A stretch of DNA of 64,000 nucleotides from Deroplatys truncata (taxonomy: Eukaryota; Arthropoda; Insecta; Mantodea; Mantidae), in NCBI GenBank assembly GCA_030765065.1, contig CM060981.1:226927152-226991151 (forward strand), written 5' to 3'. The translations under genes were made by a program, and so were the position numbers. Below, piece by piece: positions 7,094 through 64,000 of the stretch. The notes under the pieces are model-generated. The model was given only the letters and a program-made list of their open reading frames with translations. It did no database searches and was not told where the DNA came from. Each line of letters starts with the position of its first letter. The first letter of the stretch is position 1.

Positions 7094-8340
7094 CACTATG
7101 TGATCAAAAGTATCCGGACACCTGGCTGAAAATGACGTACAAGTTCGTGGCGCCCACCATCGGTAATGCTGGTAGCCAATATGGTGTTGGCCCAACCTTA
7201 ACCTTGATGACAGCGTTCACTCTCGCAGGCATACTTTCAATCAAGTGCTGGATGGTTTCTTGGGGAATGGCAGCCCATTCTTCACGGAGTGCGGAGCTGA
7301 GGAGAGGTATCGAAGTAGATCGGTGAGGCCTGGTACTAAGTCGGCGTTCCAAAACACCCCAAAGGTGTTCTATAGGATTCAAGTTAGGACTCTGTGCAGG
7401 CCAGTCCATTACAGGGATGTTATTGTCGTGTAACCACTCCGCCACAGCCCGTGCAGTATGAACAGGTGCTCGATCGTGTTGAAAGATGCAATCGCCATCC
7501 CCGAACTGCTCTTCAACAGTGGGAAGCAAGAAGGTGCTTTAAATATCAAAGTAGGTCTGCGCTGTGATCGTGACACGCAAAAGAACAAGGGGTGCAGGCC
7601 CCTGCAGGAAAAACACGACCACACCTTAACACCACCACCTCCGAATTTCACTGTTGGCACTACACACGTTGGCAGATGACGTTCACCGGGCATTCGCCAT
7701 ACCCACACCCTGCCATCGGATCGTCATATTGTGTACCGTGATTCGTCACTCCACACAACGTTTTGCCACTGTTAAATCGTGTAATGTTGACGCTCCTTAC
7801 ACCAAGCGAGGCGTCGTTTGGCATTTTCCTGCATGATGTGTGGCTTATGAGCAGCCGCTCGACTATGGAATCCAAGTTTTCTCGCCTCACGCCTAACTGT
7901 CATAGTACTTAGAGTGGATCCTGATGCTATTTGGAATTTCTATGTGATGGTCTAGATAGATGTCTGCCTATTACTCTTTACGACCCTCTTCAAATATCGG
8001 CGGTTTCTGTCAGTCAACAGACGAGGTCGGCCTGTACGCTTTTGTGCTGTACATGTCCCTTCATGTTTCCACTTCACTATTACATCAGAAACAGTGGACC
8101 TAGGGATGTTTAGGAGTTTGGAAATCTCGCGTACAGACTTCTGACACAAGTGACACCCCATTACCTGACCACGTTCGTAGTCCGTGAGTTGCACGGAGCG
8201 TCCCATTCTGCTTTTTCTCGATGTCTAATGACTACTGAGGTCGCGGATAATGAGTACTAGGCAGTAAGTGGCAGCACAATGCACCTAAGATGAAAAACGT
8301 ATGTTTGTGTGGGTGTCCGGATAGTTTTGATCACATAGTG
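7094..8340 (-). mobile_element. Tc1-like DNA transposon, copy 1
   Basis: This 1.25-kb element is bounded by inverted repeats: CACTATGTGATCAAAAGTAT on the left, and GTCCGGATAGTTTTGATCAC then ATAGTG on the right. The TA target duplication is present on the left (7092-7093); the right flank reads GGATA, so that side has decayed. It carries a minus-strand transposase relic. It lies in the 3' tail of an S1 SINE, so it is younger than that SINE. Confidence 0.9.
7104..8206 (-). pseudogene. Tc1-like transposase relic (broken)
   Basis: The start MGRSVQLTDYERGQ lies at 8206. The first 84 residues form the paired DNA-binding HTH region, including the GRPRLLTDRNRR hinge. The catalytic core is spread over several frames. 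The first Asp survives as SDESRY at about 7750. The second lies in [11 protein letters not shown] and the Glu in NLNPIEHLW, both in the last open stretch (7104-7529). That DD34E layout is Tc1. Frame changes between 7530 and 7950, including one within the WSDESRY-to-WVWRMPG stretch, prevent a full product. The family normally has about 340 residues. Confidence 0.85.
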
Positions 8341-10123: not shown

Positions 10124-10277
10124 CACCATTATGTATGCTTTCATCTGTCTAGGGTTCTAATCACCGTCATTAAAAACCCAATTTGCACTCTGAATGTTTG
10201 AATTAGGTTTAATTTTAATGTTGCAAAACTGTTAATATGACCAAAAACGTATAGGTATTTAAACAAATTAAAAATAA

Positions 10278-11121
10278 TCTGCTGTGTTACACTCACATGA
10301 CTTTCTCTACTCTTGTACAAACTATTTTTACAAACGCTTATTCTCCATATGCTTCCTGTTAATCGGGATATCGAAATGTTAATCTTATTGTTAATTTTCT
10401 TGTACGTGCAAGGGGATTTGCTAGGCTTTAAGCGATAGTCAAATATTTTAAGAGCTGGTTGTTATGTGGATTATTCCATTCTCTTTGCATTACCATGACC
10501 AAAAAAAAAAAATGAATAACGAATTCCCATTTGAGAAATTGAAAAATTTAAGGGAATAACAAGCAATATCTTGAAAATGGTACACTCAACAAATAAATGC
10601 ATATGACATAAATTGTGTATTTTAACGCGATCTACATTTTTGGTGCAGCAAACTTTTTTCTATCTCTTATGGTTTACCAGTTATGCAAAAGTCGTTCACA
10701 ATGATGAATACTTTTGGAGACATTCCCAGAAAATTCAAGATATACATTTTATTTGCCATGAAAGTATCTTAAATATATGATATTTTAATCAAAGTCGTTA
10801 GAGCCATTTTTGAGAAAATTAAAATTTTCGAAAAATATTCCATGTAAAGGGTAAGCTGGGGTGGGAAGATGTTCTTGAAAAACTTCACGTCGCATCTCTG
10901 GAAGATACTGAACCTAAATACCAAGTTTGGTGTTTATCCGACTGTTCGTTTCTGAGTTATGCTGTTCACAGACATACAGACACACACGCGGACATGTTTC
11001 CAAAAATGCCTTTTTTGAATTCAGGGGGCCTCAAAACATATATTTCCGGTGAAATCTCCGTATCGAAATTTTGGGTGGAATACGATACTTCCCTACTTAC
11101 TATACGTAGTAGGTAAAGTAA
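10278..11121 (+). mobile_element. Family A copy A03, near full length
   Basis: It starts TCTGCTGTGTTACACTCACA and ends CTATACGTAGTAGGTAAAGTA, about 844 bp. The 5' inverted repeat ACTTTCTCTACT is intact; the 3' one is altered (GTAGGTAAAGT). The internal A-run lies at about 10500-10512. The CA tract is very short (10978-10987). No coding capacity. Confidence 0.8.
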
Positions 11122-12902: not shown

Positions 12903-13199
12903 CCTGTATTACAACAACATTCTTAGAGATGTGAGAATTAACCTCTTATATATAACATTTTACTTCTCTGACATCTCAAACGGTTCATCCTGTAGTTGGA
13001 AATCGTGCATTCAGCTCCCTCTTTATTAACCGAAGGCATAACTACGTCAAGCACGCACTTACCAGCATGTTACGAATCAATGAATTTGAGTGCTTTGAAT
13101 AAGTACAAATACTAGATGGTAATGAATATAACTCTTTCATTGATATTATAGCTTTCAAAAAGGGATCACATGCAGCTTGCATACTGGATCCAACAATTA

Positions 13200-13964
13200 C
13201 AATGAAAATAATGATTGCGACTAAGCTAAACAAAGTGGATAAAGTAAAGAAGACGGAGGCACGTCGTCTATACCAACAGAGGTTTCCACAGGGAACACTT
13301 CCTACAGATCACACGTTTTTGCGAGTTACGAACCGCCTCCTGGAATCAGTGCACAAAACACCACATCCACGAAGAGATCACCCTGTCTGTGACCAAGCAA
13401 CGACGGATCGTGTGACTATGTCATTCAGTATTTGTATTGTAGTACGAGGAACATTCACGGGCATTTCAATATTAGCCACGCATTTGCGTGGAGAATACTA
13501 CATCATGCAAAGTTTCACCCTTATCATCTTCAACTACACCAGGAGCTACTGTAGCCGGACTAGTAGTGGCGTTCGCTAGGTGGATCATACGACAAGAACA
13601 AGATCCAAATTTTTGGCAACTGTGTTATTCACAGACGAAGCAGGGTTCCACAACACAGGTCATGTAAATCCCCACAACATGCATTACTGGAACACTGTAA
13701 ACCCACATTAGATGCAAGAGGCGGCCTTACAAGTCCGATGAGGTTTCAATATTTGGACTGGTATATTCAGTGATCATCTAATAGGCCCGTATTTTTATGG
13801 TGACCAACTCACTGGGAATCGCTATATCCACTTCCCACAATACCAGTTGCCTACTCTACTGGATGATGTGCCGTTGCAGAACCGACTAATTATGTGGTAC
13901 CAACATGATGGAGCGCCAGCTCATTCGGCCATTCGTCTAACGGCTTATCTCGATGCCACCTAAA
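13200..13964 (+). pseudogene. DUF4817-type transposase relic
   Basis: The N-terminal part reads ARRLYQQRFPQGTLPTDHTF (13258 on). The first catalytic segment is LFTDEAGFHNTGHVNPHN at 13625 and the second is WYQHDGAPAHSAIRLTAYL at 13895; all are in the same frame. Stops interrupt it after 13579 and within 13700-13750. It ends at about 13964 before the third acidic residue. Part of the region between the N-terminal block and the first Asp is missing. The family usually has about 350-400 residues. Confidence 0.7.
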
Positions 13965-14377
13965 TTTACTAAACACAAAAAGTACTTCCAGGTGGCAGTA
14001 TTTGAGCCTGGGACTTTCAATCCTGAAGGCCAACGCGCATACTGTTGCGCTACGAGTGCAAGTAACTGCACGCATAGCGGTGCAAGGTAGTCAATTCGGC
14101 CGAAATTGATACGACGCGATGTAGTGGACACTGTTTACAGCATAACCTGAACAACGCCGGTACTGCATTACGTCTGAATCCGCAGGCTGAAAAAACTCAC
14201 CCGCTATATGTGTGTGTATTTCTTTGAAGCATAATGTGAGGTACCGAAAGCTATTTGATGTTTATGCGTTCTAAGTATATATAAAATGGAAATTAAAACA
14301 CTGTGTATTGGGATTTAATACGGGAAATTAGTATTTTTTCTCTCCAATACTCTCCATGTTAATTTGAAGAGGAATCG
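13965..14377. other. No recognisable feature
   Basis: Mixed-composition sequence between a transposase relic and the large palindrome. No coding signal and no repeat match. Confidence 0.3.
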
Positions 14378-16273
14378 TGGCTCCCTTTACATGGAACAAT
14401 CCAAAACTGTATTATCTAGAACGGGAAAGACCAGGAAAGGTCACTTCAATCAATTAAAGTAGGCTTTAATACTGCTCTGTAAATCCAGGTGTGCGCCAGT
14501 ATATTAGATCGCTTGTGTATGCAGACATTTTAGACATTTAACCGTTCAAAATTAACTTTCTTAATTATTCATTTGGTACAATGAAACCAGCCAAGACGTT
14601 GACTAAACAGCAGCGCTTACTAGCAGCTATTTCAGGCTGAAATGCATAAAAGCTGGTGCTAGGGAAGGGATGAAATATGGAGAGGATATAGGGTAATGAG
14701 GCGGTAAAGAATGAACATTTAAATTTTGGCATGCAAGAGAGTAATTTGTCAAACTGGAATTACTTGGCGAGTGATAATATCAGATAAAGCGCGGGATAGC
14801 TGCTAAGTACTGGCAGAGGCGCATGATGTCATGGTGGATGTGAGTGCACATATCCCAATACACATTACTGTCTAATGCGAGCTTAGTAGCGTTGCAACCA
14901 AACAAACACTAGCCAAACAATCCTGATACATTACTTTTTACTTTCTGTACTACGTATAGTAAGTAGGGGAAGTATTGCATTCCACCCAAAAATTCGATAC
15001 CGAGATTTCACCGGAAATATATGTTTTGAGACCCCTGAATCCAAAAAAAGCACTTTTGGAAACATGTCCGTGTGTGTGTGTGTGTGTCTGTGTGTGTGTC
15101 TGTGAACAAAATAACTCAGAAACGAACAGTCAGATAAACACCAAACTTGATATTTAGGTTCAGTATCTTCCAGAGATGCAACACAAAGGTTTTCAAGAAA
15201 ATCCCCGCACCCCAGATTACCCTTTAAAAGGAACATTTTTCAAAAATTTTAATTTTCTCAAAAATGGCTCTAACGATTTTGTTTAAAATATGATATGTTT
15301 AAGATATTTTCATGACAAATGAAATGTATATCTCGAATTTTTTGGGAATGTCCCCAAAAGTATTCTTCATTGTGAACGACTTTTGCACAACTGGTAAACC
15401 ATAAGAGATAGACAAAATTTTACTACACAGAAATGTAGATCGCGTTAAAATACACAATTTATATTATATACATTTTTGTTGTTGAGTGAACCATTTTTGA
15501 GAAATTGCTTGTTTTTGCCTTAAATTTTCCAATACTTGCACTTTTTCTCAAATTCGTTATTCAATTTTTTTTTGTCCTGGTAATGCAAAGAGAATGGAAT
15601 ACTCCACATAGCAACCAGCTCTTAAAATAGTTGACTATCGCTTAAAGCCTACCAATTCCCGTTGCATCTACAAGAAAATTAGCAATAAGATTAACATCTC
15701 GATATCTCGTTTAACATGAAGCATATAGAGAATAAGCGTTTGTAAAAATAGTTTGTACAAGAGTAGAGAAAGTCATGTGAGTGACATCAGATTTTTGTAT
15801 AAGCAAAACATGTTTATCTGTGACCCTCGTAGTATCAATGTACATCGTGTTAAAGCGAAAGCCTGAAAAGTGTGTAGTTTCCGCTACATGGTGAAAGGAA
15901 AGAAACAAAGCCCTTGACCGACTCCTGGCAGTAATTGGTGTCTAATTTAAGCTAGAGCAATACCTTAGCTCTTTTCAGCGTGTCGGGTCGTGTTGAGATT
16001 TATGTTTCTTGGTACAGCATTCTTGATAGTGGTTTCGAAGTGCAAAACATATCTCTCGTAGTAGTAATACAAAGAAACTCATAATTCAACTTTAAACACT
16101 GTTACACATAGTGATTACAGCATTTTTCCCTGGTCATGTATGCTTGTTATTTAAGAACTCGTCGCACTTATATATTAATGATATTATGTTTTAACTACGC
16201 TATAATATAAATAATAAATACATCAGCTTTAATACACAAATTAAATTCTTCCTTTGTCAAGACGGCAGAATGG
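14378..16273 (+). repeat. Left arm of a 3.5-kb imperfect palindrome
   Basis: It starts TGGCTCCCTTTACATG and runs to about CAAGACGGCAGAATG. It is the inverse of 16857-17897. Clear anchors include GCAGACATTTTAGACATTTA, AGCGCGGGATAGCTGCTAAG, GCGCATGATGTCATGGTGGA and GTCGGGTCGTGTTGAGATTT. Without the family A insertion at 14934-15796 the arm is about 1.03 kb. Differences from the other arm are scattered substitutions and small indels. No coding frame spans it. Confidence 0.9.
14934..15796 (-). mobile_element. Family A copy A04, inside the palindrome's left arm
   Basis: This near full-length minus copy starts TACTTTCTGTACTACGTATA and ends GTGACATCAGATTTTT. It has a TG array at 15069-15105. It is absent at the matching place in the right arm (about 17335), so it inserted after the palindrome formed. 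An open frame of 101 codons on the minus strand (14931-15236) is discussed under rejected items. Confidence 0.85.
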
Positions 16274-16858
16274 GAAAAAGAACGTAAAGTTGCAGATAAC
16301 GACTGGAACTCTGAAACCGGGGTAGAGAACTGCAAGTAAGCCACGACGGCCCTTAGTACTTCTAACGTGACCCCTGGTACGGAGGGATGAGGGGAGAAAG
16401 AAACGACCTGCGGGCTTTTGACTGACTAGTCAGCCCGCACCCTCGGGCCCCAGGGAACAAGTCCGTAGAGACATACGGAAGTGAATACGCCAGTTACACG
16501 CGTCAACCTCAGATGGAGAAGACTATAGAACTATCCTCTATGTGTAGACAGTTATCTAGCTGCTGTCTACCAGCTCTCATGATTGGTTCCGGAGAACATC
16601 GGAGTGTCTCACTCCGTCTGGGCGTTTCCAGCCAGGCGCAACCACTTCCCCGCCGAGTCCAACCCAATCCGAACAACTCCCTTTCGGGATGGGCTCGAAT
16701 TGTTCGGCCCGGTACACTTCCAGTGACTTCAGAAGTATCACGAGTGCTAAGGGTCCGCGCCTGCACCATATGAGCGGAGATACCCGAAGGGCTACCAGAT
16801 GCGGATGACGATGTGCGCAAGCATTGTCGGGGTCCGTATTACCTTTTGGTTTTTTTAC
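16274..16858. mobile_element. GC-rich repeat G, copy 1, filling the palindrome loop
   Basis: About 585 bp of GC-rich DNA unlike its AT-rich arms. It matches 36157-36703 over shared blocks: CTGTCTACCAGCT, CCGCCGAGTCCAACCCAATC, CCGAACAACTCCC and GAGTGCTAAGGGTCCGC. Open frames on both strands are short and not shared between copies. The class is unknown; the second copy has target duplications, so it behaves like a retroposed element. Confidence 0.7.
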
Positions 16859-17897
16859 ATTCAACTGTTTTAAGAAAATAAGAATTTAATTACTGTGTAT
16901 TAAAGCTGATTTTGTATTTATTATTTATAGTACAGCCTAGTTAAAACATAATATCATTAATATATAAGAGCGATGAATTCTTAAATAACGAGCAAACATA
17001 ACCAGGAAAAAATGCTGTAATTACTGTGTTTAAAGTTGACTTATGAGTATCTTTGTATTACTACTAGATATGTTTTGCGTTCGAAAGGCACTATCTAGAA
17101 TGTTGTACCACTAAACATTCCGAGAAACATAAATCTCAACACGACCCGACTCGCTGAAAAAGCTAAGGTGAAGCTCTAGTTTAAATTAGACACCAATTAC
17201 TGCTAGGAGTCGGGTCAAGGGCTTTGCTTTTTTCCCTTTCACCGTGTAGTTGACATTTCACACTTTTCAGACTTGTACTTTAACACGCTGTGTATTGATA
17301 CTACGAGATAAACGTTTTATGCTTGGTACACAAAGTAATATAACAGGATTATTTGGCTAGTGTTCGTTTAGTTGTAACACTCTCAATAGATAGTAATGTG
17401 TATTGGGGGTTGTGCACTCATATCCACCATGACATCATGCGCCTCTGCCAGTACTTAGCAGCTATCCCGCGCTTTATCTGATATTATCACCTCGCCAAGT
17501 AATTCCAGTTTGACAAATTACTCTATTGCATGCCAAGATTTGCATGTTCATTCTTTACCGCCTCATTACCCTATATCCTCTCCATATTTCATCCCTTCCC
17601 TGGCACCAGCTTTTATGTATTTCAGCCTGAAATAGCTGCCAGTAAGCGCTGCTGTTTAGTCAACGTCTTGGCTGTTCACGAAGGCATTTTTCATTGTACC
17701 AAATGAATAATTAAGAAAGTTAATGTTGAACGGTTAAATGTCTAAAATGTCTGCATATACAAGCGATCTAATAGACTGCCGTTTACCTGGATTCACATAC
17801 CAGTAATAAAACCTAATTAAATTTACTATAGTCACCTTTCCTGATCTTTCCCGTCCTCCACAATGCATTTTTTGGTCGTTACATGTAAAGGGAGCCA
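16857..17897 (-). repeat. Right arm of a 3.5-kb imperfect palindrome
   Basis: This is the reverse complement of the left arm (14378-16273 minus its insertion). It ends CATGTAAAGGGAGCCA. It is about 1.04 kb long and uninterrupted. No flanking duplication is evident beyond the arm ends. Confidence 0.9.
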
Positions 17898-18521
17898 TGG
17901 TAGTACAGAACTAAAATATTTCTGCGATATGTTTGGTATAATACACGATGTTCATTCATAATTGTATGCACGGAGTATAACAGCGATTTATAGATCTTTG
18001 TTGTTCTCAACTCAAACATAACTGCCACAGTCAAAGCCAAATATACGACAAAAATCTTGATATGTATTGTGTTCTTAGTGCAATTGTAAGTTATCATAGT
18101 GTGATCCTTCCGTGGTTTCATTACCTTTAAACCTGCCTCCAAATAAATAAGCATATAAACGTCATTTTCTTCAATGCCACAGATAAGCATATGTCCTTTA
18201 AAGTTACAACTTCTCCACTTCATTTTTACGTAAGATATAGCGAGCATGTGAACCTGTGCCTTTCGTTATTTCGTAGCTTCTCATTCCTAGTTCAATGCCC
18301 ATGGTTAGAACTAAGGTAATAGGAGAAATGACTAGATGCACTTATTACAATATCGCCCGATGTTGATAGATGACTAGAGCACAAAGAAATGTAATTATGT
18401 AAACAAATGTCAGGATTTCGCTCCCTCCAAAAGGAGTGAACTTAATTTCAGTAATGCAGTATGTAACAATCCGCATCACAATCGTATAGTCGAAGCACAA
18501 TAAAACCAATGGTTTTAACCC
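17898..18521. other. No recognisable feature
   Basis: AT-rich. A minus-strand open frame of 122 codons (17879-18247) overlaps the palindrome end and has no domain I recognise. Confidence 0.3.
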
Positions 18522-20866: not shown

Positions 20867-22003
20867 CACCACGTGATCAAACGTATCCGGACACCTGGCT
20901 GAAAATGACGTAGAAGTTCGTGGCACCCTCCATCGGTAATCCTGGAAGTCAATATGGTGTTGGCCCACCCTTAGCCTTGATGACAGCGTTCACTCTCGCA
21001 GGCATACTTTCAATTAGGTGCTGGAAGGTTTCTTGGGGAATGGCAGCCCATTCTTCACGGAGTGCAGAACTGAGGAGAGGTATCGATGTAGTTCGGTGAG
21101 GCCTGGCACGAAGTCGCGTTCCAAAACATCCCAAAGGTGTTCTATAGAATTCAAGTCAGGACTCTGTGCAGGTCAGTCCATTACAGGGATGTCATTCTCG
21201 TGTAACCGCTCCGCCACAGCTCGTGCAGTATGAAGAGGTGTTCGGTGGTGTTGAAAGATGCAATCGCCATCCCCGATTTGCTCCTGAACAGTGGGAAGCT
21301 AGAAGGTGCTTAAAATATCAATGTTGGTCTGCGCTGTGATCGTGCCACGCAAAACAACAAGGGGTGCAAGCCCCCTCCAGGAAAAACACCACTACCTCCG
21401 AATTTCACTGTTGGCACTACACACGCTGGCAGATGACGTTCATCGGGCATTCGCCATACCCACACCCTGCCACATTGTCGTTTGGCATTTTCCTGCGTGA
21501 TGTGTGGCTTATGAGCAGCCGCTCGACCATGGAATCCAAGGTTTCTCACCTCACGCCTAACCGTTATAGTACTTGGGGTGGATCCTGATGCAGTTTGGAA
21601 TTCATGTGTGATGGTCTGGATAAATGTCTGCCTATTACTCTTTACGACCCTCTTCAAATGTCGGCGGTCTCTGTCAGTCAACAGGCGAGGTCGACCTGTA
21701 CGCTTTTGTGCTGTACATGTCCCTTCGCGTTTCCACTTTACTATCACATCAGAAACAGTGGAGTTAGGGATGTTTAGGAGCGTGGAAATCTCGCGTACAG
21801 ACTTCTGACACAAGTGATACCCAATCACCTGACCACGTTCGAAGTCGTGAGTTCCACGGAGCGTCCCATTCTGCTGTTTCACGATGTCTAATGACTACTG
21901 AGGTCGCGAATAATGAGTATCAGGCAGTAGGTGGCAGCACAATGCACCAAAGATGAAAAATGTATATTTGTGTGGCTGTCCGGATACTTTTGATCACATA
22001 GTG
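20867..22003 (-). mobile_element. Tc1-like DNA transposon, copy 2
   Basis: It is bounded by CACCACGTGATCAAACGTAT and GGATACTTTTGATCACATAG, then TG. The right flank keeps TA (22004-22005); the left flank reads TT. It is 1.14 kb, about 105 bp shorter than copies 1 and 3 because of an internal deletion. It sits inside an A2 copy. Confidence 0.9.
20949..21882 (-). pseudogene. Tc1-like transposase relic with internal deletion
   Basis: The N-terminal 130 residues are open (21882 down), including FERGQVIGYHLCQKSVREIS and the GRPRLLTDRDRR hinge. After ITQENAKR the frame jumps to VWVWRMP. The deleted segment (about 30 residues) held the first catalytic Asp (SDESRY in copy 1), so this copy could not be active. 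A C-terminal piece, SALREEWAAIPQETFQHLIE, remains at 20949-21134 in another frame. Confidence 0.85.
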
Positions 22004-26184: not shown

Positions 26185-26360
26185 GATACCCTCGTAGCCA
26201 TGGTAGCTGAGGCGTATAGCTTCAGCGCTCTGCCAAGCTGAAGGTCGCGGGTTCGAGTCCCGCCATGGGCATGGGTGTTTATATGTGTAATTGCGGTAAC
26301 AAGCGGTAAAATAAAACAGTAAAACACAGTGCTCCTAAACTGGGTAAACAAGGCAACTTG
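26185..26360 (+). mobile_element. tRNA-derived SINE S2, plus copy
   Basis: The head reads ACCCTCGTAGCCATGGTAGC. A canonical B box, GGTTCGAGTCCCGCCATGGG, lies at 26250-26270. The tail is GCGGTAACAAGCGGTAAAAT, then ACTGGGTAAACAAGG. Copies at 53283 and 55445 share every block. This is not a functional tRNA: the body continues past the T arm without a tRNA 3' end. Confidence 0.75.
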
Positions 26361-27935: not shown

Positions 27936-28352
27936 ATTCTCTTGACTAACCTCATAGTTATGAGATTGTCTCAAATAGACAATAAAAAAGCACTTCCCCA
28001 GTTTTTCCACCATCTCACAATTATCATTTTTAATTAAACCTATCATCCTACCATTAAAGGAAAAAAGTCCTGGAATGGTTAAAGTCGGGAGACCCCTAAG
28101 TGGAACTATCTCCCAGTGACACCTACTCTGAAGAAAGTCTCACTGGAGAGGCTCTGTCATTGCTGTGCCGTCACTCCTGATTTCGATTGCCAGGTGTCTC
28201 CCTTTACCTCATCTCGCCTTTCTGACCAACTAGGAGCGCTTTTTGAGGATACCTACTTTACTATTAGGCGTAATTTCCTGCATCAGATTAAGCGTAACCC
28301 GTCGTCTGTTAGCCTAGAAACGCCCAAGGACTTGTTTCTTAATTTCGGATGT
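27936..28352. other. Unassigned; one open stretch
   Basis: A plus-strand open frame (28116-28445) encodes SLERLCHCCAVTPDFDCQVS and LGALFEDTYFTIRRNFLHQI, but its last 30 codons run into family A sequence. The first 80 codons look protein-like in composition but match nothing I know. It could belong to the LINE's 3' region or be a host exon scrap. Confidence 0.3.
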
Positions 28353-34566: not shown

Positions 34567-35358
34567 TTTTGTTAATATTTTGGAAAACACGACCGAGATA
34601 GGGTGTTTAAATTTTGAAAGACGAGACCAAGTTAGGTTGTTAATATTTTGTAAAATGGGACAGAGTTAGGTTGATAATATTTTGTAAACCGGGACTGAGT
34701 TAGGTGTTTACATTTTGTAAGATGGGACCGAGTTAGGTTGTTAATATTTTGTAAACCGGGACCAAATTAAGTGTTTACAGTTTGTAAGATGGGACCGAGT
34801 TAGGTTGTTAATATTTTGTAAAACGTGACCGAGTTAGGTGTTTACATTTTGTAAGAGGGACAGAGTTAGGTTGTTAATATTTTGTAAAACGTGACCGAGT
34901 TAGGTGTTTACTTTTTGTAAGATGGGACCGAGTTAGGTTGTTAATATTTTGTAAAACGGGACCGAGTTGGGTTGTTAATATTTTGGAAAACGTGACCGAG
35001 TTAGGTGTTTACATTTTTTAAGATGGGACCGAGTTAGGTTGTTAATATTTTGTAAAACGGGACCGAGTTGGGTTGTTAATATTTTGGAAAACGTGACCGA
35101 GTTAGGTGTTTACAGTTTGTAAGATGGGACAGAGTTAGGTTGTTAATATTTTGTAAACCGGGACCGAGTTAGGTTGTTAATATTTTGTAAACCGGGACCG
35201 AGTTAGGTTGTTAATATTTAGTAAAACGTGACGAGTTAGGTGTTTATATTTTGTAAGATGGAACGACCGAGTTAGGTTTTAATATTTTGTAAAACGGGAC
35301 CGAGTTGGGTTGTTAATATTTTGTAAAACGGGACCGAGTCAGGTTGTTAATATTTTGG
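34567..35358 (+). repeat. 33/34-bp minisatellite with two monomer types
   Basis: About 24 units. Type 1 reads GTTAGGTTGTTAATATTTTG then TAAAACGGGACCGA. Type 2 reads GTTAGGTGTTTACATTTTGT then AAGATGGGACCGA. They alternate over the first half. In the middle a three-unit block (type 1, a GTTGGG variant, type 2) is repeated. The first two units and the last are the most diverged, as in arrays that homogenise from the centre. No open frame spans the array. Confidence 0.95.
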
Positions 35359-62776: not shown

Positions 62777-62958
62777 AGCTATAGATTTTAACTGTGCAGT
62801 AAACACACCTTAGGGATAGAACTGGAAAAATGTTTTTAACACACTGCCTAAATCTCTCGGTATGGACAAGTAAGGTGGATATTGCATAATACCATCATAA
62901 TTTGAAGTTTTAAATGCAAATCATTGCTTAAATGAAGAAAGAACCCAAAGAAAAAAAA

Positions 62959-63185
62959 TCTGATGTGTTACACTTACATGACTTTCTCTACTCTTGTACA
63001 AACTATTTTTACAAACGCTTATTCTCCATATGCTTCATGTTAATCGAGATGTCAATCTTATTGGTAATTTTCATGTAGATGCAAGGGGAATATGCTAGGT
63101 TTAAAGCTATAGTCAAATATTTTAACGCTGGTTGCTATGTGGCGCATTCCATTCTCTTTGCATGTCCAATACGTAAAAAAAAAAA
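62959..63185 (+). mobile_element. Family A 5' module A20, ending at the internal A-run
   Basis: It starts after AAAAAAAA with TCTGATGTGTTACACTTACA, and ends ATACGTAAAAAAAAAAA. The next full copy begins at once. Confidence 0.75.
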
Positions 63186-64000
63186 TCTGATGTGTTACAC
63201 TCACATGACTTTCTCTACTCTTGTACAATCTATTTTTACAAACGCCTATTCTCCATATGCTTCATGTTAATCGAGATATCGAGATGTCAATCTTATTGCT
63301 AATTTTCTTGTAGATGCAAGGGGAATATGGTAGCTTTTAAGCGATGGTCAAATATTTTAACGCTGGTTGCTATGCGGCGCATTCCATTCTCTTTGCAAGT
63401 CCAGGACATAAAAAAATGAATAACGAATTTGAGAAAAAGTATAAGTATTGGAAAATTTAAGGGAATAACAAGCAATATCTCGAAAACGGTTCACTCAACA
63501 AAAGAAATGTATATGACATAAGTTGTGTATTTTAACGAGATCTACATTTTTTGTGTAGTAAAATTTTGTCTATCTCTTATGGTTTACCAGTTATGCAAAA
63601 GTCGTTCACAATGAAGAATACTTTTGGAGACATTCCCAGAAAATTCGAGATATACATTTCATTTCTCATGACATCTTAAACATATGATATTTTAATCAAA
63701 ATCGTTAGAGCCATTTTTGAGAAAATTAAAATTTTCGAAAAATGTTCCATGTAAAGGGTAGTCTGGGGTGGGGGCATTTTCTTGAAAACCTTCGTGTCGC
63801 ATCTCTGGAAGATACTGAACCTAAATACCAAGTTTGGTGTATATCCGACTGTTCGTTTTTGAGTTATGCTGTTCACAGACACACAGACACACAGACACAC
63901 AGACACACAGACACACAGACACACAGACACACAGACACACAGACACACAGACACACAGACACACAGACACACAGACACACAGACACACACACGGACATGT
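63186..64000 (+). mobile_element. Family A copy A21, runs off the window
   Basis: It starts TCTGATGTGTTACACTCACA in the A-run of A20 and is complete up to the CA-type array, which here is an ACACAG octamer-like array (63884-63984). The last bases are CACGGACATGT, so about 130 bp of the element lie beyond the window. Confidence 0.8.
63884..63984. repeat. ACACAGAC array inside family A
   Basis: About 12 units of ACAGACAC. Other A copies have pure CA at this spot, so this copy expanded a variant unit. Confidence 0.9.

What the first reader, a model, noticed from the sequence alone, without database searches (positions are those of the whole stretch)
14378..17897. A 3.5-kb imperfect palindrome with ~1-kb arms and a GC-rich loop
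The two arms match end to end in inverted orientation, from TGGCTCCCTTTACATG to the loop, with only scattered differences. The loop is almost exactly one copy of element G. This could be a foldback transposon with very long inverted termini, or an inverted duplication. Transcription through it would give a long hairpin RNA, a possible siRNA source.
Basis: partly seen in the sequence, partly recalled or inferred. Interest (0 to 1): 0.75.

Follow-up and report, generated by a model that had tools for sequence, protein, structure and literature searches.

The report
Old single-copy inverted DNA duplication
About one kilobase of otherwise unique DNA was long ago copied next to itself in mirror orientation, and common repeats now sit inside and between the copies; it is most likely an ageing duplication rather than a mobile element, and whether it makes a hairpin RNA is untested.

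Summary
The palindrome is real and its ends are exact (14378-17897). Anatomy: left arm 14378-14934 plus 15797-16280, GC-rich loop 16281-16850, right arm 16851-17897. Much of the loop matches a GC-rich repeat family. The arms agree at 914 of 1015 aligned columns, unevenly: one 322-column block is 97.5% identical, the rest 86.6% (0 of 5000 shuffles as good). In the 4.29-Gb genome the two arm stretches searched match only this locus, and the 16-bp terminus occurs exactly twice, at the arm ends. No target-site duplication was seen. This argues against a foldback-transposon family and for an old inverted duplication of single-copy DNA, with uneven divergence from gene conversion or local constraint (inferred). 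A long hairpin RNA is possible on paper; transcription and small RNAs were not testable, and no homologous target locus was found. Low to moderate interest.

The parts
14378..14934 (+). left arm, outer part; begins TGGCTCCCTTTACATG
   Evidence: 87% to 17332-17897 inverted; the right arm is its only other match in the genome (query 14378-14935)
14935..15796 (+). 862-bp copy of a very abundant interspersed repeat inserted in the left arm
   Evidence: five of six genomic loci compared match it in one piece with edges 14930-14939 and 15796-15802, the sixth in two pieces; absent from the right arm; another window copy, 10273-11121, has 86 hits in 264 kb
15797..16280 (+). left arm, inner part
   Evidence: 82% to 16851-17307 inverted over 15826-16279; 15797-15825 joins in the global alignment
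16281..16850 (.). loop, 54% GC, largely a diverged copy of a GC-rich repeat (homology 16315-16397, 16397-16468, 16475-16821 in different loci)
16851..17897 (-). right arm, uninterrupted; ends CATGTAAAGGGAGCCA
   Evidence: genome query 16851-17340
14518..14839 (+). left half of the highly similar block (partner 17422-17757), 8 mismatches in 322 aligned columns
17422..17757 (-). right half of the highly similar block
13961..14219 (.). left flank, copy of a roughly 250-bp repeat; not part of the palindrome
   Evidence: 39 other places among the 40 scored (of 2610 candidates), within query bases 1-260

Best explanation
An old local inverted duplication of about 1.05 kb of single-copy, apparently non-coding DNA. 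A repair or replication event copied the segment next to itself in reverse orientation (inferred). The centre is now largely a GC-rich repeat copy, which either lay between the copies from the start or inserted later; larger spacers go with lower instability of inverted repeats (stated in PMC1803023, Discussion). Later an 862-bp abundant repeat inserted in the left arm (shown: the right arm keeps the uninterrupted site). The arms drifted to about 13% difference outside one block. The block at 2.5% difference is most simply a patch re-homogenised by arm-to-arm gene conversion (inferred), with local constraint as the alternative. No function need be invoked.
For: Mirrored arms. The arm stretches searched match only here in 4.29 Gb (2 candidates, 2 matches each, the two arms). 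Terminal 16-mer exactly twice genome-wide, 0 for the reversed control. No target-site duplication. No Pfam family above its cut-off in 4 ORFs of the arms and right flank or 2 of the loop; 6 Rfam matches in 13900-18500, none reaching its gathering score. Insert in one arm only. Uneven divergence, 0 of 5000 shuffles.
Against: The outermost 16 columns are perfect although the first 100 columns, those included, are only 78% identical; this resembles a selected terminus, though an alignment's end is always chosen to match. The block could be constraint; its GC (39 and 41%) equals that of the outer arm (41 and 39%), so GC-biased conversion is not evident there. The genome search skips very common words and states that no match does not show rarity; strongly diverged relatives would be missed. 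A decayed target-site duplication cannot be excluded. The copy number of the right flank and of 14220-14377 on its own was not obtained.
Confidence: 0.72

Rival explanations
1. A foldback or long-terminal-repeat DNA transposon, now the only surviving copy.
For: Long inverted arms around a non-homologous centre, with 16-bp perfect outer ends.
Against: No other copy of the arm stretches searched; exact terminus found only here, and within the window the only other match with up to 3 mismatches has all 3 (28195-28210; 0.58 matches expected by chance); no target-site duplication flush with the ends, the longest words shared by the 60-bp flanks being 5 bp and out of register; no transposase recognised in the ORFs tested.
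Confidence: 0.1
2. A hairpin-RNA (hpRNA) locus: transcription through it gives a long dsRNA cut by Dicer-2 into siRNAs against a related gene. It could have arisen by the same duplication, so it does not exclude the best explanation's origin.
For: The predicted + strand fold pairs 506 of 560 outer and 405 of 455 inner left-arm bases with the right arm; 10 perfect runs of 21 bp or more, the longest 69 (no shuffle control).
Against: No second locus similar to the arms, whereas in the Drosophila passages read the arms resemble their targets (PMC10317233, 12 passages); no clear excess of G-U over A-C mismatches (31 and 25); a large repeat now splits one arm. A target matched over a short stretch only would be missed.
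Confidence: 0.12
3. The duplication is as described, but the 322-column block is kept alike by selection on both copies (for example a regulatory element) and not by conversion. Overlaps with the best explanation in origin.
For: 97.5% identity in the block against 86.6% outside.
Against: Two paralogous copies cannot separate constraint from conversion. No sign of coding: stops in all six frames of both outer arms; the 8 block mismatches fall 4, 2, 2 on the three codon positions, too few to decide. No Rfam or Pfam family at its cut-off.
Confidence: 0.15

Closest known systems
Long inverted repeats of Caenorhabditis (PMC1803023: abstract, part 1 of 2 of Results, Discussion)
   Same: Long inverted arms around a spacer, with gene conversion proposed; one lineage there let its palindrome degenerate, the nearest parallel to the decay here.
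   Different: There the arms belong to paralogous gene pairs and are 95.7-99.2% alike in the first example; here no gene is recognised and only one block is that alike.
Foldback transposons (Tetris of Drosophila virilis, PMC4079207: search listing only)
   Same: Long inverted terminal repeats around a different centre (recalled).
   Different: Those are multi-copy families with target-site duplications (recalled); here one copy and none seen.
Drosophila hpRNA loci (PMC10317233: 12 passages)
   Same: Inverted repeat able to form a long hairpin.
   Different: Transcription and siRNAs untested; no target homologue found.

Membership tests
foldback / long-TIR DNA transposon | inverted terminal repeats | tested here: met
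foldback / long-TIR DNA transposon | target-site duplication flush with the ends | tested here: not met
   decay of an old one not excluded
foldback / long-TIR DNA transposon | further copies sharing at least the termini | tested here: not met
   (exact matches only)
foldback / long-TIR DNA transposon | transposase in this or a partner element | tested here: inconclusive
   none in the ORFs tested; a partner would appear only if its 16 terminal bases were identical
hpRNA locus | inverted repeat that folds as a long hairpin | tested here: met
   (prediction)
hpRNA locus | arms similar to a target gene elsewhere | tested here: not met
   none at the search's sensitivity
hpRNA locus | Dicer-2-dependent siRNAs and a primary transcript | not testable with these tools
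   no RNA data
gene-converted palindrome | arms kept nearly identical along their length | tested here: not met
   97.5% in 322 of 1015 aligned columns, 86.6% in the rest
gene-converted palindrome | structure conserved across species while sequence drifts | not testable with these tools
   the genome search states that no relatives of this genome are held
inverted duplication of single-copy DNA | arms single-copy apart from each other | tested here: met
   for the two stretches searched (558 and 490 bp)

The most novel reading that the evidence does not exclude
The palindrome is a maintained hairpin locus: the 322-column block, with perfect duplex runs of up to 69 bp, is kept alike because a transcript from it is diced into siRNAs, while the rest of the arms decays; it would be an old, single-copy hpRNA gene without a long homologous target in its own genome.
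Probability: 0.08. Interest if true: 0.55.

Novelty: new member of a known kind. Interest (0 to 1): 0.25.

Why it matters
It is a readable natural record: one duplication, one later insertion with the uninterrupted site kept in the sister arm, and an uneven decay that could measure how conversion and drift act on an inverted repeat. If small RNAs were found it would become an hpRNA candidate. As it stands it is a fairly ordinary relic.

Tried and rejected
Foldback transposon: rejected as a family. Coding arms: the homologous short ORFs 14565-14732 (-) and 17530-17706 (+) have no Pfam match up to E 1; a third arm ORF, 17734-17898 (-), has two weak matches below their cut-offs (E 0.067 and 0.086) that I take as chance. 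ORFs of the inner arms were not tested. Known RNA: 6 sub-threshold Rfam matches in 13900-18500, the best E 0.27 (HtrA_thermometer). Strand-specific hairpin selection: G-U against A-C 31 to 25. Assembly artefact: unlikely with 10% arm divergence and a one-arm insert. Gene context: a Pfam Cuticle_3 frame about 17 kb upstream suggests an insect host (family's range recalled); of the other 9 frames I chose from the flanks, one matched DDE_Tnp_1_7, one HTH_32 below cut-off and 7 nothing, so no gene was shown to contain the palindrome. In that sample the right flank 17898-18520 and left flank 14211-14377 match only themselves. Their genome-wide copy number, and a protein search with the 17530 ORF, did not complete. 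Paper searches served to find comparisons; apart from the two papers named as read in part, I saw listings only.

Full report
Observation. Inverted similarity runs from 14378 to 17897, as stated. BLAST splits it into 14378-14937 with 17897-17332 (87%) and 15826-16279 with 17307-16851 (82%). Between the two left blocks lies an 862-bp repeat, 14935-15796: five of six genomic loci compared match it in one piece with edges 14930-14939 and 15796-15802, the sixth in two pieces. The right arm has no such insert at the corresponding point and reads through with a few base differences, so the insert came after the duplication. Leaving the insert out, the global alignment has 1015 aligned columns with 101 mismatches (55 transitions, 46 transversions), K2P 0.107 overall and 0.149 outside the best block; gaps are not counted in these figures.

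Uneven divergence. One block, 14518-14839 with 17757-17422, has 8 mismatches in 322 columns; the other 693 columns have 93. 0 of 5000 shuffles of the mismatches gave a block scoring as high. The block still holds a 13-base and a 1-base length difference. The first 100 columns are 78% identical, though the first 16 of them are perfect. A conversion tract and constraint both fit. GC in the block (39 and 41%) is near that of the outer arm (41 and 39%) and above the inner arm (36 and 33%), which does not decide between them.

Loop. The loop is 54% GC. Its search scored 40 of 4755 candidates and gave 43 matches, itself included, so it belongs to a large family. Nine other loci were compared; 9 of 9 match 16477-16758, one (L017) also 16315-16397 and on to 16821, one (L012) also 16397-16468. 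'Almost exactly one copy of element G' is fair for a diverged copy. As RNA, 16300-16850 folds somewhat better than shuffles (z -2.43; 2 of 100 shuffles as good); I draw nothing from it.

Copy number. The outer left arm (14378-14935) and the inner right arm (16851-17340) each match only this locus: 2 candidates and 2 matches each, the two arms. The same kind of search found copies of the loop repeat down to about 70% identity, so moderately diverged arm copies should have been seen; but the tool skips very common words and warns that no match does not prove rarity. The terminal 16-mer occurs once forward and once reverse in 4,289,915,091 bases, the reversed control never. All 7 of 42 fetched loci that hold it overlap this same place. 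The left flank 13961-14219 is itself a repeat (39 other places among 40 scored of 2610 candidates); none of those 40 extends into 14220-14377, which does not prove that stretch unique.

Is it a transposon? The flanks share no target-site duplication at the ends; the longest shared words in 60 bp on each side are 5 bp and out of register. The ORFs tested from arms, right flank and loop have no Pfam match at the cut-off. A transposon family is not supported; a last surviving copy with a decayed duplication cannot be excluded.

Is it a hairpin-RNA gene? ViennaRNA pairs 506 of 560 outer and 405 of 455 inner left-arm bases with the right arm, and there are 10 perfect runs of 21 bp or more, the longest 69. 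Any such inverted repeat would do this, and no shuffle control was run. If selection kept one transcript paired, G-U should outnumber A-C on that strand: 31 against 25 is no clear evidence. In the passages read, Drosophila hpRNAs resemble their targets (PMC10317233); no such partner was found here.

Context. A Cuticle_3 frame lies about 17 kb upstream, which suggests an insect. Of 13 inverted alignments in a 264-kb sample, 11 are pairs of abundant repeats and 2 are this palindrome. In Caenorhabditis some long inverted repeats are kept alike over long times while one is let go, and the authors note that in mammals such loci are stabilised by central asymmetry formed by deletion and that instability falls with spacer size (PMC1803023). 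The repeat-filled centre here would fit a stabilised inverted repeat, by inference.

Verdict. An old inverted duplication of single-copy DNA, later broken by a common repeat, with one patch of high identity. Shown: the palindrome, the uninterrupted site in the sister arm, the absence of further copies at the search's sensitivity, and the uneven divergence. Inferred: the duplication mechanism and gene conversion. Untested: transcription and function. The confidences given to the rivals are not exclusive of one another, since two of them share the duplication origin.

Noticed in passing
window 14935-15796 and many places: A family of roughly 860 bp with an internal GT-rich stretch is extremely dense: the copy at 10273-11121 has 86 blastn hits, fragments included, in a 264-kb sample, and the insert has over 30 alignments in the window.
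   Followed up: partly
window 34569-35357: Tandem array of a 34-bp unit (23 copies), also read with a 101-bp period.
   Followed up: no
window 62951-63416: A 235-bp unit in two tandem copies (90% matches) that matches the end of the abundant 860-bp family.
   Followed up: no
window 7107-7538, 21313-21894, 13103-13576: Partial Tc1/mariner-like transposase frames: DDE_3 and HTH_Tnp_Tc3_2 above cut-off; at 13103 DUF4817 below its cut-off.
   Followed up: no
L027:6223-6999: Open frame with Pfam Cuticle_3 (E 1.5e-20), about 17 kb upstream of the palindrome.
   Followed up: no
window 26197-26271: tRNA match above Rfam's gathering score; a tRNA gene or a tRNA-derived repeat.
   Followed up: no
window 17900-17917: Bases just outside the right arm resemble the reverse complement of the start of the 860-bp family over about 18 bp; seen by eye, possibly chance.
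   Followed up: no
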